Positions 6,173 to 18,537 of a stretch of 23,747 nucleotides of DNA are shown here, piece by piece (the stretch's first letter is position 1; each line of letters starts with the position of its first letter). A model generated the notes under the pieces. It worked only from the letters and a program-made list of their open reading frames with translations. It made no database searches and was not told where the DNA came from. The position numbers were made by a program, and so were the translations under genes. The stretch is from positions 1 through 23,747 of IMG/VR virus record IMGVR_UViG_3300027779_000162; one strand, written 5' to 3'. The stretch comes from a virus.

Positions 6173-6565
6173 ATGGCTTACAGCGAAAAAGTGCTCAGAC
6201 ATTTTGAGAACCCCAGTAATGTTGGAACATTAGATAAAAATGATCCATCTGTTGGTACAGGTCTGGTTGGTGCTCCAGAGTGTGGTGATGTAATGCAACT
6301 CTCAATAAAGGTAAACGATGAAACTGGTCAAATCGAAGACGCGAAGTTCAAAACTTTTGGGTGCGGTAGTGCTATCGCTAGCAGTTCCCTTGCTACTGAG
6401 TGGGTTATTAATCGAACTATTGATGAGGCGGAAGAATTCAGCAACGTGGAAATTGTGGAAGAACTCTCTCTCCCCCCTGTTAAAATTCACTGTTCTGTTT
6501 TGGCAGAAGATGCAATCAAGTCAGCCATCGAAAATTATCGTAATAAACAAAATAAAAAAGCATAA
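6173..6565 (+). CDS. iscU: IscU-type Fe-S cluster assembly scaffold
   Basis: A 130-residue protein that looks like a complete bacterial IscU (E. coli 128 residues). IscU takes sulfur from the desulfurase IscS, builds a [2Fe-2S] cluster and passes it on with HscA/HscB. Cluster ligands are all present: C37 with D39 in APECGDVM, C64 in FGCGSAIASSS, and H106-C107 in KIHCSVLAED. The HscA recognition motif LPPVK is intact at 100-104, so the protein should be able to use the host ISC chaperones. No iscS, iscA or hscA is near it. It ends in a Lys/Asn-rich tail and overlaps the holin-like gene by one base. Phage-carried IscU is an auxiliary metabolic gene; its benefit to the phage is inference. Confidence 0.93.
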   Translation: MAYSEKVLRHFENPSNVGTLDKNDPSVGTGLVGAPECGDVMQLSIKVNDETGQIEDAKFKTFGCGSAIASSSLATEWVINRTIDEAEEFSNVEIVEELSLPPVKIHCSVLAEDAIKSAIENYRNKQNKKA

Positions 6566-14384: not shown

Positions 14385-15641
14385 ATGTTAGCATTTTCGT
14401 CATTTCGTGCTCCAGAGACAGGGTTTATTGTCGAAGGTAAAGAAGGCAAAAACCTCCATCTCGAGCATCTTGAGGATGAAGTCCTTAACGGAGGTGTTGA
14501 GGGAGTCTCGACAGCATTCAAGTTTTTGGATGCTCTAGAAGAGATGATGAGAGGGAGTTCGAAATCTTCAGTAAAAATAACTACCAAATGGGACGGAAGT
14601 CCTGCTATCTTCTGTGGTAAGGATCCTGCTGATGGGGTGTTCTTCGTAGGAACGAAATCCATTTTCAATCAGAATCCTAAACTATGTAAGACTGTTAAGG
14701 ACGTTGACGAGCATTATTCTGATTCGGGATTAAACCCGAAACTCAAAATCGCTCTCGCCAAACTGAAAGATATTGGCATACCCGACGGACACGTATTCCA
14801 AGGGGATATGATGTTCACGTCTGAAGATCTTGAGAATAAAACGATAGATGGAACAGACTACGTTACGTTTCAACCGAATACTATAGTCTATGCCATTCCA
14901 AAAGGCACTCCCTTTGCCAATCAAATAAAAGGGTGCAAACTCGGTGTAGTTTTCCATACTGATTATTCAGGATCTGGAGAACTCGCAGAATACCGAGCAT
15001 CATTTAATCCTGCCGTAAAGAAACTGCGGGCACCGAAAGATGTATGGATTCAGGATGCTGAGTATTCTGATGCATCTGGTACTGCGATGTTTACTGCTAC
15101 AGAAAGCAAAAAGTTTAGTGGAATGCTTGATGGTGCGAGGAAGATAGGCAAAAAGATAGATCATTCATTAATTGAGCGATTCGCCAAAGACGAAAAGTTG
15201 AGGGTTGATGTAAAAGCATTCATGAATTCTAAGATAAGGCAAGGTCAGAAAATTGCTAATACAGCAAAAATGGCAATAGAACTGCTGGCATACCTAGAAG
15301 AAAAGCAGATGAAAAAAATTGGTAAACTTAAAACCCAAAAGACCATCGATGCTAAAACAACTGACTTAAAAAAGTTTATTAAAGACCTGTCATCTTCGAA
15401 AGGAAAACTTAAAATAGTGTTTGATTTGATGAATGCTATTCAGCAAGCCAAAGACTACATTGTCAAGAAACTGGAGAAAGTAAAACAAATGACAGATACC
15501 TTTGTCAAGACTGAGACAGGATTCAGGGTTACCGGTCCAGAAGGTTTTGTTGCCGTGGATAAGATGAAAGGTAATGCTGTCAAAATAGTAGATCGCTTGG
15601 AATTTTCCATGGCGAACTTTAACGCAATCAAAAGTTGGTAA
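14385..15641 (+). CDS. conserved phage protein with ligase-type KxDG motif
   Basis: A 418-residue protein of a type I recall from marine T4-like phages (LEHLEDEVLNGGVEG near residues 26-40; possibly DUF6267). Residues 68-71 are K-W-D-G within TTKWDGSPAIF, like the nucleotide-binding motif I (K-x-D-G) of the DNA/RNA ligase and capping-enzyme superfamily. FFVGTKSIFN (86-95), VFQGDMMF (137-144) and LGVVFHT (186-192) fall where motifs III, IIIa and IV might be expected. The C-terminal half (about 240-400) is lysine-rich and helical. The N-terminal IVEG (15-18) could be a prohead-protease site. A ligase-like or nucleotidyl-transferring role is inference; no activity is proven. AAAGGG (14375-14380) is the ribosome binding site. 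Confidence 0.65.
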   Translation: MLAFSSFRAPETGFIVEGKEGKNLHLEHLEDEVLNGGVEGVSTAFKFLDALEEMMRGSSKSSVKITTKWDGSPAIFCGKDPADGVFFVGTKSIFNQNPKLCKTVKDVDEHYSDSGLNPKLKIALAKLKDIGIPDGHVFQGDMMFTSEDLENKTIDGTDYVTFQPNTIVYAIPKGTPFANQIKGCKLGVVFHTDYSGSGELAEYRASFNPAVKKLRAPKDVWIQDAEYSDASGTAMFTATESKKFSGMLDGARKIGKKIDHSLIERFAKDEKLRVDVKAFMNSKIRQGQKIANTAKMAIELLAYLEEKQMKKIGKLKTQKTIDAKTTDLKKFIKDLSSSKGKLKIVFDLMNAIQQAKDYIVKKLEKVKQMTDTFVKTETGFRVTGPEGFVAVDKMKGNAVKIVDRLEFSMANFNAIKSW

Positions 15642-16430: not shown

Positions 16431-17033
16431 ATGAAGTCATACAACAGTTTTATCAAAGAAGCAAAAAACGAAAAGGTAGCAGTAGTTACTTTTGGTAGAC
16501 TGAATCCTCCAAGCATTGGTCACAGCAAACTGATCGATGTAATGTTGGGAGTTGCCAAACGTAACTCAGGCACGCCAATGGTTTTTCTTTCTCACACTCA
16601 AAATTCTAAAAAAGATCCTCTTGACTATAGAACTAAAGTCAAGATCTGTCAAAAGGCATTTGGACGTGACATCATTAAAAACGACACCGTCAATAATCCT
16701 TTTGATGTAGTCTATAAACTGCGTGACGAAGGTTATACTCACGTTTATTTTATAGCAGGATCAGATCGAGTCCCTCAGTACACTACGATGTTTAAGAAGT
16801 ACTCGGGACATCCTGACAAGGATAAGGATATTGGTGTTAAGTTGCAGGTTGTCTCTGGAGGTGATAGAGATCCTGACGCTGATAATGCTGAGGGTATGTC
16901 AGCAGGTAAAATGCGAACATTCGCAATGGAAAACGACTACGAGCATTTTGTGCTTGCTAGTCCTGATAAACTAAGTGTACCCGATGTCAAAAAATTGTTT
17001 ATTGCAGTAAGAAAAGCAATGGGTGCAAAATAA
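16431..17033 (+). CDS. HIGH-type nucleotidyltransferase with capsid-targeting-like N-terminus
   Basis: A 200-residue protein of the cytidylyltransferase/NMN-adenylyltransferase superfamily, which joins a nucleotide to a phosphorylated substrate with release of diphosphate. Residues 21-31 (FGRLNPPSIGH) form the nucleotide-binding loop and H-x-G-H-like site with Ser at the first His. GSDRV (110-114) and EGMSAGKMR (154-162, the ISxTxxR-like motif) complete the fold. The substrate cannot be told: NMN, glycerol-3-phosphate and others are possible. The first 11 residues MKSYNSFIKEA strongly resemble the T4 internal-protein capsid-targeting sequence MKTYQEFIAEA, with a possible prohead-protease cut after E10. 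If so it is packaged in the head and injected. No strong Shine-Dalgarno is visible. Confidence 0.82.
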   Translation: MKSYNSFIKEAKNEKVAVVTFGRLNPPSIGHSKLIDVMLGVAKRNSGTPMVFLSHTQNSKKDPLDYRTKVKICQKAFGRDIIKNDTVNNPFDVVYKLRDEGYTHVYFIAGSDRVPQYTTMFKKYSGHPDKDKDIGVKLQVVSGGDRDPDADNAEGMSAGKMRTFAMENDYEHFVLASPDKLSVPDVKKLFIAVRKAMGAK

Positions 17034-17190: not shown

Positions 17191-18537
17191 ATGAAAAAAT
17201 TCAAGACTATATTTGAAGAAGTCAAGGAACCTACGTTTCTTATACTCACAATTTCAAATCCTCAAGATAGCAATCCTCAGAAATTTTGGGGTGCGATGAA
17301 AAATACCTATATCGTTTACGTAGATGAATGCTATTTGGATACCAAGAAGATTAGATCAGGTAAAATTACCATCAATAATTATAATGGTAAACTTGATAAT
17401 CTTCCCATAACTGTGAATGAAACTTTTGCTATTCCTTTGGGGTCAGTATTGGTTGATGAGTCACGATTGGGTATTGTTGAGTCTCTTGAGACAATTGGTG
17501 TAGCCATGCTCAATGAGATCAGTAGCATGAAAAATGCGAGAAACAAACTCACGACTTCCCGTATTCTTGTTGAGGCCAAACTGCCAACACCGATTACTTC
17601 TATCGTCCACCCTGCCGTGTTAGATGATGCTATGAAGACAGTTGGTGGCAAGTTCCCGATGATTCTCAAAACTGTGACAGGTTCTCAGGGCAAAGGGGTA
17701 ATGAAAATTGAGTCAATGGACTCTCTCAGATCTGTCGTTGATGCCTTTGACATAGACAAAAAAGAAATCCTATTACAGCAGTACCTTCCTATCAAATATG
17801 ATATTCGTGTTGGTGTTCTGATGGGTGAAGCAGTTTTCGCTATGAGAAGATTTAAGGCAGATAAAGATTTTAGAACAAATATTAAACTTGGTTCAGCTTA
17901 TGAACCTTTCCGACCAACTCCTGAGATGGTTAGGATGGCAGAACTTGCTGCCAATGCTATGCATATGAGATTTTGTGGTGTTGATATCGGAGTTGGCGAA
18001 TTTGGAAATACTATTATAGAAGTGAATGGATCTCCTGGTGTATCTGGGAAATATTATTTCATCAAAGATAAAAAAGATATTGTTGGCACAGATCTAGTAA
18101 AATTTATGCACACATATTTTCAAGACGAAGAGAATTGGTCTAGAAATAAAACCGAGATTGGGGTCATTGAACCTGTTAAATTTGCCTGGGGCGATATGCT
18201 GGCAAAAATGGATACAGGTTGTGGTGGTTCATCTACACTTGATGCTAGAAATCTCAAGGTAACAAAGAACAATCGTGCCATTTTCAAAGTTGGCCGAACA
18301 GGCAAAACAATAACAATGCCAGTTGACGAATTTGAGACTGTTCAAGGTGCAGTCGGTACAGAAAAGGAAAGGCGACCCGTGGTCACCATTCCGATGACCT
18401 TTCGTAAAAAAGAATATCCTGTCCGTTTCTCTCTAGCAGATCGTGGTCATATGAACTACCCTGTACTAATGGGAACAGGATGGATGCAAAAAAATGGATT
18501 CGTTGTGAATCCAGACATACGCAACGAACCTAAATAG
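17191..18537 (+). CDS. RimK-like ATP-grasp ligase fused to RimB-like retropepsin
   Basis: A 448-residue two-domain protein. Residues about 90-310 form a RimK-type ATP-grasp ligase: FPMILKTVTGSQGKGVMKI (155-173) is the phosphate loop, LLQQYLP (194-200) and DIRVGVLMGEAVFAMRR (204-220) line the ATP site, and IIEVNGSPG (275-283) carries metal-binding E277 and N279. RimK adds glutamates to the C-terminus of ribosomal protein S6. Residues about 325-448 match the RimB/'ATP-dependent zinc protease' retropepsin family: catalytic D341-T-G and LADRGHMNYPVLMGTGW (415-431); RimB is reported to remove or limit those glutamates. The N-terminal MKKFKTIFEEV resembles a T4 capsid-targeting sequence. Domains are well supported; target protein and packaging are inferred. 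Confidence 0.85.
   Translation: MKKFKTIFEEVKEPTFLILTISNPQDSNPQKFWGAMKNTYIVYVDECYLDTKKIRSGKITINNYNGKLDNLPITVNETFAIPLGSVLVDESRLGIVESLETIGVAMLNEISSMKNARNKLTTSRILVEAKLPTPITSIVHPAVLDDAMKTVGGKFPMILKTVTGSQGKGVMKIESMDSLRSVVDAFDIDKKEILLQQYLPIKYDIRVGVLMGEAVFAMRRFKADKDFRTNIKLGSAYEPFRPTPEMVRMAELAANAMHMRFCGVDIGVGEFGNTIIEVNGSPGVSGKYYFIKDKKDIVGTDLVKFMHTYFQDEENWSRNKTEIGVIEPVKFAWGDMLAKMDTGCGGSSTLDARNLKVTKNNRAIFKVGRTGKTITMPVDEFETVQGAVGTEKERRPVVTIPMTFRKKEYPVRFSLADRGHMNYPVLMGTGWMQKNGFVVNPDIRNEPK
18529..18536 (+). promoter_or_regulatory. CCTAAATA motif, possible late promoter
   Basis: CCTAAATA overlaps the stop codon of the RimK-RimB gene and is 16 bases before the next ATG. It precedes a run of probable structural genes (18553 onward). 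The short distance to the start leaves a leader of only about 10 bases, but AAGGA still fits. Confidence 0.4.

What the first reader, a model, noticed from the sequence alone, without database searches (positions are those of the whole stretch)
17191..18537. RimK ligase and RimB-type retropepsin fused in one phage protein
Seen: ATP-grasp motifs at residues 155-283 and a retropepsin D341-T-G with LADRGHMNYPVLMGTGW at 415-431 in one uninterrupted frame. Known: RimK adds glutamates to ribosomal protein S6 and RimB, a retropepsin-like peptidase, opposes it; their genes are often neighbours. Inference: the phage carries writer and eraser together, possibly to set a defined tail length on S6 or on a phage protein, and the capsid-targeting-like N-terminus would deliver it at the start of infection. 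This links phage infection with ribosome reprogramming.
Basis: partly seen in the sequence, partly recalled or inferred. Interest (0 to 1): 0.8.

Follow-up and report, generated by a model that had tools for sequence, protein, structure and literature searches.

The report
Head-packaged phage RimK–RimB fusion enzyme
This phage gene makes one protein that joins an enzyme adding glutamate tails to proteins with the protease that trims such tails, and it starts with a tag that in phage T4 loads proteins into the virus head, so many marine T4-like phages may inject a tail-editing enzyme with their DNA.

Summary
Window 17191-18537 is one uninterrupted 448-aa frame with a RimK ATP-grasp ligase (116-287) followed by a RimB/RloA-type retropepsin (about 320-443, DTG at 341-343). 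Sequence profiles and predicted structures agree for both halves. It is neither an artefact nor a one-off. I found the same RimK-first, RimB-second fusion in one frame in 162 of 166 fetched loci: T4-like marine contigs, Pelagibacter phage Mosig and Yersinia phage YerA41. Two gut-phage contigs also carry it. Catalytic residues are invariant, and dN/dS is about 0.04-0.11 in both domains.

The N-terminal tag is the strongest new evidence. Of 43 non-redundant members, 41 begin with a T4-type capsid-targeting/gp21-cleavage motif (background 2 of 855 windows), at the positions (4, 7, 8, 10) mapped experimentally in T4 IPIII.

RimBK hybrids are already published in bacteria, but with RimB first. All five intact bacterial fusions I found have that order and form a separate clade. 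So this is a new, phage-specific, reversed-order, probably virion-packaged variant.

Not shown: enzyme activity, and that ribosomal protein S6 is the target. Co-occurrence of phage-encoded bS21 (21/35 records against 0/35 controls) hints at the ribosome. The window's own lineage has altered putative specificity residues.

The parts
17191..18537 (+). RimK-RimB fusion gene, 448 aa (called RimKB here)
   Evidence: Open frame; both domains detected; dN/dS 0.06-0.07 against L001/L002.
17191..17220 (+). Residues 1-10, MKKFKTIFEE: capsid-targeting/gp21-cleavage-like tag
   Evidence: F4 near-invariant and E10 invariant in 40 aligned members; motif in 41/43 N-termini against 2/855 internal windows; residues 1-8 disordered in the model; T4 IPIII determinants are residues 4, 7, 8 and 10.
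17233..17472 (+). Pre-ATP-grasp region (about residues 15-94)
   Evidence: Whole-model Foldseek match covers nearly all of RimK (302 columns against 290 target residues, TM 0.78). The Pfam Rimk_N model is not detected here, although it is in a bacterial RimBK.
17437..17439 (+). Leu83 codon: position of E. coli RimK Arg64, a poly-glutamate contact
   Evidence: R in 42/44 members, L only in the window and L001; role of R64 from PMC10092738.
17536..18051 (+). RimK ATP-grasp domain, residues 116-287
   Evidence: PF08443 3e-29; E. coli K100, K141, D187, R189, R203, R211, N213, D248, E260 and N262 equivalents invariant in 44/44.
18019..18021 (+). Glu277 codon, equivalent of E. coli RimK E260 (metal-site glutamate)
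   Evidence: Invariant.
18148..18534 (+). RimB/RloA-type retropepsin domain, residues 320-448
   Evidence: PF05618 5e-9; domain model pLDDT 89.8; best PDB fold matches 2pma (DUF785), RloA2 and RloA, then HIV-1 protease.
18211..18219 (+). D341-T-G catalytic motif
   Evidence: D and G invariant in 40/40, T or S at 342.
18433..18483 (+). LADRGHMNYPVLMGTGW, RimB-family C-terminal signature (residues 415-431)
   Evidence: R418 and L426 invariant in 40/40; T429 is Arg in 35/40.
16431..17033 (+). Upstream neighbour: cytidylyltransferase-like protein with its own textbook CTS, MKSYNSFIKEA
   Evidence: phrog_3041 1e-47; same gene just upstream of the fusion in L001, starting MKTYTQFIREA.

Best explanation
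It is a virion-packaged, bifunctional protein-tail editor of T4-like phages. Steps: (1) the N-terminal tag loads the protein into the prohead core and the prohead protease gp21 clips the tag (inferred from motif conservation and the T4 precedent). (2) The protein is ejected with the DNA and is present before any phage gene is expressed (inferred). (3) The RimK domain uses ATP to add alpha-linked glutamates to the C-terminus of a target protein (inferred from invariant catalytic residues and closest homology to true RimK). (4) The retropepsin domain dimerises and trims poly-glutamate, limiting tail length, and may also stimulate the ligase as RimB does (inferred from RimB biochemistry). The most likely target is a host translation component on the 30S platform, S6 being the leading but unproven candidate. 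In the window's own lineage both catalytic centres are kept, but several putative glutamate-contact residues are changed, so its substrate may differ. Shown here: the fusion, its conservation, purifying selection, both folds (predicted) and the tag motif. Everything about activity and target is inference.
For: One frame with two significant domains. The A2 profile hits RimK structures first (7qyr 1e-57) and RloA (3e-10); the A3 profile of the C-terminal domain hits RloA2, RloA and 2pma. Foldseek: RimK TM 0.78-0.81 for the ligase part and RloA/2pma TM 0.7-0.8 for the peptidase part. Ten catalytic RimK residues are invariant in 44/44 and D341/G343 in 40/40. dN/dS is 0.04-0.11 in both domains. 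The CTS motif is in 41/43 members against 2/855 background windows; the T4 determinants are residues 4, 7, 8 and 10 (PMC9026906); in Mosig the fusion is one of only 2 of 179 ORFs with the strict N-terminal motif, and Mosig encodes a gp21. The YerA41 member is annotated 'structural protein' in a genome whose virion proteome was done by LC-MS/MS. RimB cleaves tails of six or more glutamates and stimulates RimK (PMC11957791). bS21 is in 21/35 fusion-bearing records against 0/35 control records.
Against: No activity data for any phage member. The YerA41 member lacks the CTS-like motif, so mass-spectrometry evidence and tag evidence come from different members; particle-associated lists can contain abundant carry-over enzymes; and I could not open its Table S2. 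The published bacterial RimBK hybrid showed protease but no S6 glutamylation. S6 in MAGs into which related phage contigs were binned ends in Glu in only one of three, though those MAGs may not be hosts. Phage Melnitz keeps a tagged RimK without RimB, so the eraser is dispensable in at least one relative.
Confidence: 0.6

Rival explanations
1. Packaged anti-defence or takeover effector acting on a non-ribosomal host protein. Like T4 internal proteins (IPI inhibits a restriction enzyme), the injected fusion glutamylates or trims a host defence or regulatory protein.
For: T4-type CTS proteins are a varied set of defence proteins sharing only the tag (PMC3012670). Related gut-phage members sit in MAGs whose S6 does not always end in Glu. 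The fusion lies in different gene neighbourhoods in different phages, as accessory weapons do.
Against: No similarity to known defence or anti-defence models (PADLOC, no hit). The bS21 co-occurrence points to the ribosome instead.
Confidence: 0.25
2. It acts inside the assembling head on a phage protein, adding or trimming glutamate on the acidic scaffold/core peptides, and is not an ejected effector.
For: The tag places it in the prohead core. RimB cuts internal poly-glutamate runs as well as tails (PMC11957791). The Mosig core protein is Glu-rich.
Against: Ligation needs ATP and glutamate, which are unlikely to be sustained inside a DNA-filled head. No Mosig or window ORF contains a run of five or more Glu.
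Confidence: 0.1
3. Only one half works: either RimB is just a RimK activator or dimerisation module, or RimK is just a docking module for the protease.
For: RimB stimulates RimK synthesis about fourfold. The Desulfotalea RimBK is protease-active without observed S6 glutamylation. In Bacteroidota L174-L177 the RimK half of a same-order fusion is gutted, and Melnitz has lost RimB.
Against: Both sets of catalytic residues are invariant over lineages about 30% identical, and both domains are under purifying selection.
Confidence: 0.2
4. A small-molecule or peptide ligase (glutathione synthetase-like, as annotated in Mosig and YerA41).
For: Database annotation and a weak GSH-S_ATP match, 2.6e-11.
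Against: RimK profiles and structures win by a wide margin, and the partner domain is a polyglutamate-type protease.
Confidence: 0.05

Closest known systems
RimK (S6--L-glutamate ligase, E. coli/Pseudomonas; PDB 5zct, 5zk6, 7qyr)
   Same: ATP-grasp fold over nearly the whole of RimK (TM 0.78-0.81), all catalytic residues.
   Different: Only about 25% identical; Arg8 absent; Rimk_N not detectable by Pfam; Arg64 replaced by Leu in the window lineage; carries a head-targeting tag and a C-terminal retropepsin.
RimB / RloA retropepsins (PF05618; PDB 2pma, 9g58, 9g59)
   Same: Retropepsin fold, DTG, the R418 and L426 signature.
   Different: Fused behind RimK; no signal peptide (unlike RloA); phage family motif DTGN..LHAD (the RimB motif DTGA is from memory); window lineage further altered (DTGC, D351, R353, T429).
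Bacterial RimBK hybrid (Desulfotalea psychrophila DP2392; Flavobacteriales, Rhodobacterales; PMC11957791)
   Same: Same two domains in one polypeptide.
   Different: RimB is N-terminal there; all five intact bacterial fusions I found have that order and form a separate clade (92/85). No CTS.
T4 internal proteins IPI-III / Alt (CTS-tagged, injected)
   Same: N-terminal tag with matching positions 4, 7, 8, 10 and a gp21-type cleavage site.
   Different: Cargo is a RimK-RimB enzyme, not a known internal protein. T4 itself was not compared here.
Phage stand-alone RimK (cyanophage S-RIM12, phrog_2599) and Melnitz RimK
   Same: RimK ligase encoded by a T4-like phage.
   Different: S-RIM12 has neither tag nor RimB and sits on the bacterial side of the tree; Melnitz has the tag but no RimB and nests inside the fusion clade.

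Membership tests
RimK alpha-L-glutamate ligase | RimK-type ATP-grasp sequence and fold | tested here: met
   PF08443 3e-29; profile 1e-57 to 7qyr; TM 0.78-0.81. The NCBIfam rimK_fam subfamily cut-off is just missed (131.8 against 143.4 bits).
RimK alpha-L-glutamate ligase | ATP/Mg and terminal-glutamate residues (K100, K141, D187, R189, R203, R211, N213, D248, E260, N262) | tested here: met
   Invariant in 44/44 members including the window.
RimK alpha-L-glutamate ligase | Poly-glutamate chain contacts R8 and R64 | tested here: not met
   R8 not conserved in the family; R64 is R in 42/44 but L in the window.
RimK alpha-L-glutamate ligase | Adds Glu to the C-terminus of S6 | not testable with these tools
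   Needs an in vitro assay.
RimB/RloA retropepsin (PF05618) | Retropepsin fold with D-T/S-G | tested here: met
   Domain model and Foldseek; D and G in 40/40.
RimB/RloA retropepsin (PF05618) | Equivalog-level RimB (NF052261, cut-off 200 bits) | tested here: not met
   22.4 bits: a family relative, not an orthologue-level RimB.
RimB/RloA retropepsin (PF05618) | Homodimer that cleaves poly-glutamate | not testable with these tools
   Inferred only.
Bacterial RimBK hybrid | RimB at the N-terminus of RimK | tested here: not met
   Order is reversed; bacterial hybrids are RimB-first and in another clade.
T4-type CTS internal (ejected) protein | N-terminal motif with determinants at positions 4, 7, 8 and 10 | tested here: met
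   Motif 41/43; F4 and E10 conserved. Window has F4, I7, F8, E10.
T4-type CTS internal (ejected) protein | Tag cleaved by gp21 during head maturation | not testable with these tools
   Needs semi-tryptic virion proteomics; the window fragment does not include a gp21 gene.
T4-type CTS internal (ejected) protein | Present in the virion | tested here: inconclusive
   YerA41 homologue labelled structural protein in a genome with an LC-MS/MS virion proteome, but that member lacks the CTS and its table entry was not read.

The most novel reading that the evidence does not exclude
A widespread family of T4-like phages injects, with its DNA, a writer-plus-eraser enzyme that installs a length-controlled poly-glutamate tail on the host 30S platform (S6, next to the phage-supplied bS21), retuning translation initiation before any phage gene is read.
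Probability: 0.3. Interest if true: 0.9.

Novelty: new variant of a known kind. Interest (0 to 1): 0.72.

Why it matters
How T4-like phages of abundant ocean bacteria take over translation is largely unknown. A head-packaged enzyme that both adds and removes glutamate tails would be an unusual kind of injected effector. It would be the first phage use of the RimK/RimB system that I could find in the papers searched, and it gives a concrete, testable link between virion cargo and host ribosome modification. The reversed domain order and a clade separate from bacterial RimBK indicate a phage invention rather than a borrowed bacterial hybrid.

Tried and rejected
Frameshift or assembly chimera: rejected; independent contigs and about 160 relatives carry the same frame. 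Glutathione synthetase: rejected as the primary identity, because RimK profiles and structures score far better. Derived from a bacterial RimBK: rejected on order and tree. A stand-alone phage auxiliary RimK of the cyanophage type: rejected; S-RIM12 RimK falls on the bacterial side of the tree and lacks the tag. Phage proteins with poly-Glu tails as substrates: none found in Mosig or the window. T4 late promoter TATAAATA upstream: none in the window beyond chance. Defence-system match: none. YerA41 protein as a direct query of IMG/VR: no relatives retrieved. S6 C-termini of MAGs carrying related phage contigs: mixed and not decisive. An earlier attempt to centre genome searches on loci failed for technical reasons.

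Full report
What is in the window. The window is a 23.7-kb IMG/VR fragment of a T4-like myovirus; it has a sliding clamp and clamp loader, a RegA-like repressor and a DNA polymerase (by reading the translations) and a DnaB-like helicase. ORF 17191-18537 is open for 448 codons. Pfam finds RimK at 116-287 (3e-29) and Zn_protease/RimB at 338-441 (5e-9, above cut-off). NCBIfam places the second part nearest RloA3 and RimB but far below equivalog cut-offs.

It is a real, conserved protein. Close relatives L001 and L002 (86-87% identity) have the same frame with dN/dS 0.06-0.07 overall against the window, 0.04-0.06 in the RimK part and about 0.11 in the RimB part. Of 166 loci then in hand, 162 carry both domains in one frame; the exceptions are the RimK-only phages Melnitz and S-RIM12 and two contigs ending inside the gene. 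Pelagibacter phage Mosig and Yersinia phages YerA41/GN1 have it at about 30% identity, and two gut Clostridia/Erysipelotrichales MAG contigs with phage-like neighbours carry the same order (their RimB half is recognised by the family alignment rather than by Pfam).

Structure and catalytic residues. AlphaFold2 with a 40-sequence family alignment gives mean pLDDT 84.5 with residues 1-8 disordered. Foldseek ranks RimK first (5zct, 4e-21; 7qyr TM 0.81). The C-terminal 129 residues modelled alone (pLDDT 89.8) match 2pma (DUF785), RloA2 and RloA first, then HIV-1 protease. Ten RimK catalytic positions are identical to E. coli in 44/44 members, and D341 and G343 are invariant in 40/40. Thus both active sites are kept. 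However, Arg64 of RimK, a contact of the poly-glutamate chain in the P. aeruginosa structure (PMC10092738), is Leu83 in the window and L001 but Arg in 42/44; and in the retropepsin part H351, D353 and R429 of the family are D, R and T in the window lineage. Substrate preference in this lineage may have shifted (inference).

The tag. 41 of 43 non-redundant members carry [FYL]xx[FYLIM][LIVMF]xE within the first 22 residues, against 2 of 855 internal windows of the same proteins. F4 is near-invariant and E10 invariant. In T4 IPIII, residues 4 and 7 direct packaging and residues 8 and 10 direct gp21 cleavage (PMC9026906). In Mosig the fusion is one of only two of 179 ORFs with the strict form, and Mosig encodes a prohead core/protease protein. 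The window's own tag fits the looser form only (FKTIFEE). The window's upstream neighbour, a cytidylyltransferase-like protein, has a textbook tag, MKSYNSFIKEA. The YerA41 member lacks the motif but is annotated 'structural protein' in a genome whose particles were analysed by LC-MS/MS (63 particle-associated proteins; PMC7354516). I could not read that paper's Table S2, and such lists may include carry-over, so packaging is likely but not proven.

Relation to bacterial hybrids. RimBK hybrids are published: RimB at the N-terminus, poly-glutamate protease active, no S6 glutamylation seen (PMC11957791). I searched 16 genomes of the order of G001, 148 of its phylum, 299 of the phylum of G002 and 195 of the phylum of G005 with the retropepsin profile. 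The intact fusions found among the loci read (L213, L219, L221, L255, L256) are all RimB-first; not every weaker hit was fetched. The only cellular RimK-first cases (L174-L177, L183-L186) have a gutted ATP-grasp half. In a RimK-domain tree, phage fusions and the tag-bearing Melnitz RimK lie on one side and all bacterial RimK, RimBK and cyanophage S-RIM12 on the other (100/97). RimBK forms its own group (92/85), and Melnitz nests within fusions (96/93), implying a loss of RimB. The tree is unrooted and some long branches make fine placement unsure.

What it may act on. bS21 is encoded in 21 of 35 fusion-bearing phage records and in none of 35 clamp-loader-anchored T4-like records, of which two carry a fusion match. 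Melnitz also has bS21; S-RIM12 does not. bS21, bS18 and bS6 form one pocket on the 30S platform (PMC9976891 abstract). The records are not independent and many are fragments; YerA41 and a 108-kb contig with the fusion lack bS21. S6 C-termini in MAGs associated with related phage contigs end in Glu in one of three. So a ribosomal target is plausible, S6 specifically unproven.

Literature. Searches for RimK/RimB with phage, virion or S6 glutamylation returned no account of this fusion in phages; the library is open-access only. Verdict: a new, phage-specific variant of the known RimK/RimB pair, with reversed order and a head-packaging tag; function well constrained, target open.

Noticed in passing
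16431-17033: Cytidylyltransferase/NMNAT-like protein (phrog_3041) directly upstream with a near-perfect T4 capsid-targeting tag (MKSYNSFIKEA; MKTYTQFIREA in L001): probably a second packaged enzyme.
   Followed up: partly
14385-15641: DUF6267 protein; PHROG 455 holds DUF6267 and the cytidylyltransferase at different places of one profile, suggesting they are fused in other phages.
   Followed up: no
L004 (Mosig) and 20 IMG/VR records: Phage-encoded ribosomal protein bS21 occurs in 21 of 35 fusion-bearing records against 0 of 35 control records; needs a tree-aware test.
   Followed up: partly
L174:4227-5408, L175:1295-2476, L176/L177:4272-5483: Bacteroidota proteins with the same RimK-first order but the ATP-grasp core lost and an intact retropepsin very close to the phage type: a possible domesticated or repurposed relative.
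   Followed up: partly
L253:467-2461, L257:1859-3766, L258:1584-3470: Pseudomonadota frames of 628-664 aa with two or more tandem RimB-type retropepsin matches in one chain.
   Followed up: no
L006:82-1131: Methylophilales phage Melnitz has a RimK without RimB that still carries the tag (KFSQFITEE) and nests inside the fusion clade: apparent loss of the eraser.
   Followed up: yes
6173-6565: Window encodes an IscU/NifU-like Fe-S scaffold protein (by eye) between a small lipoprotein-like ORF and a membrane-like ORF.
   Followed up: no
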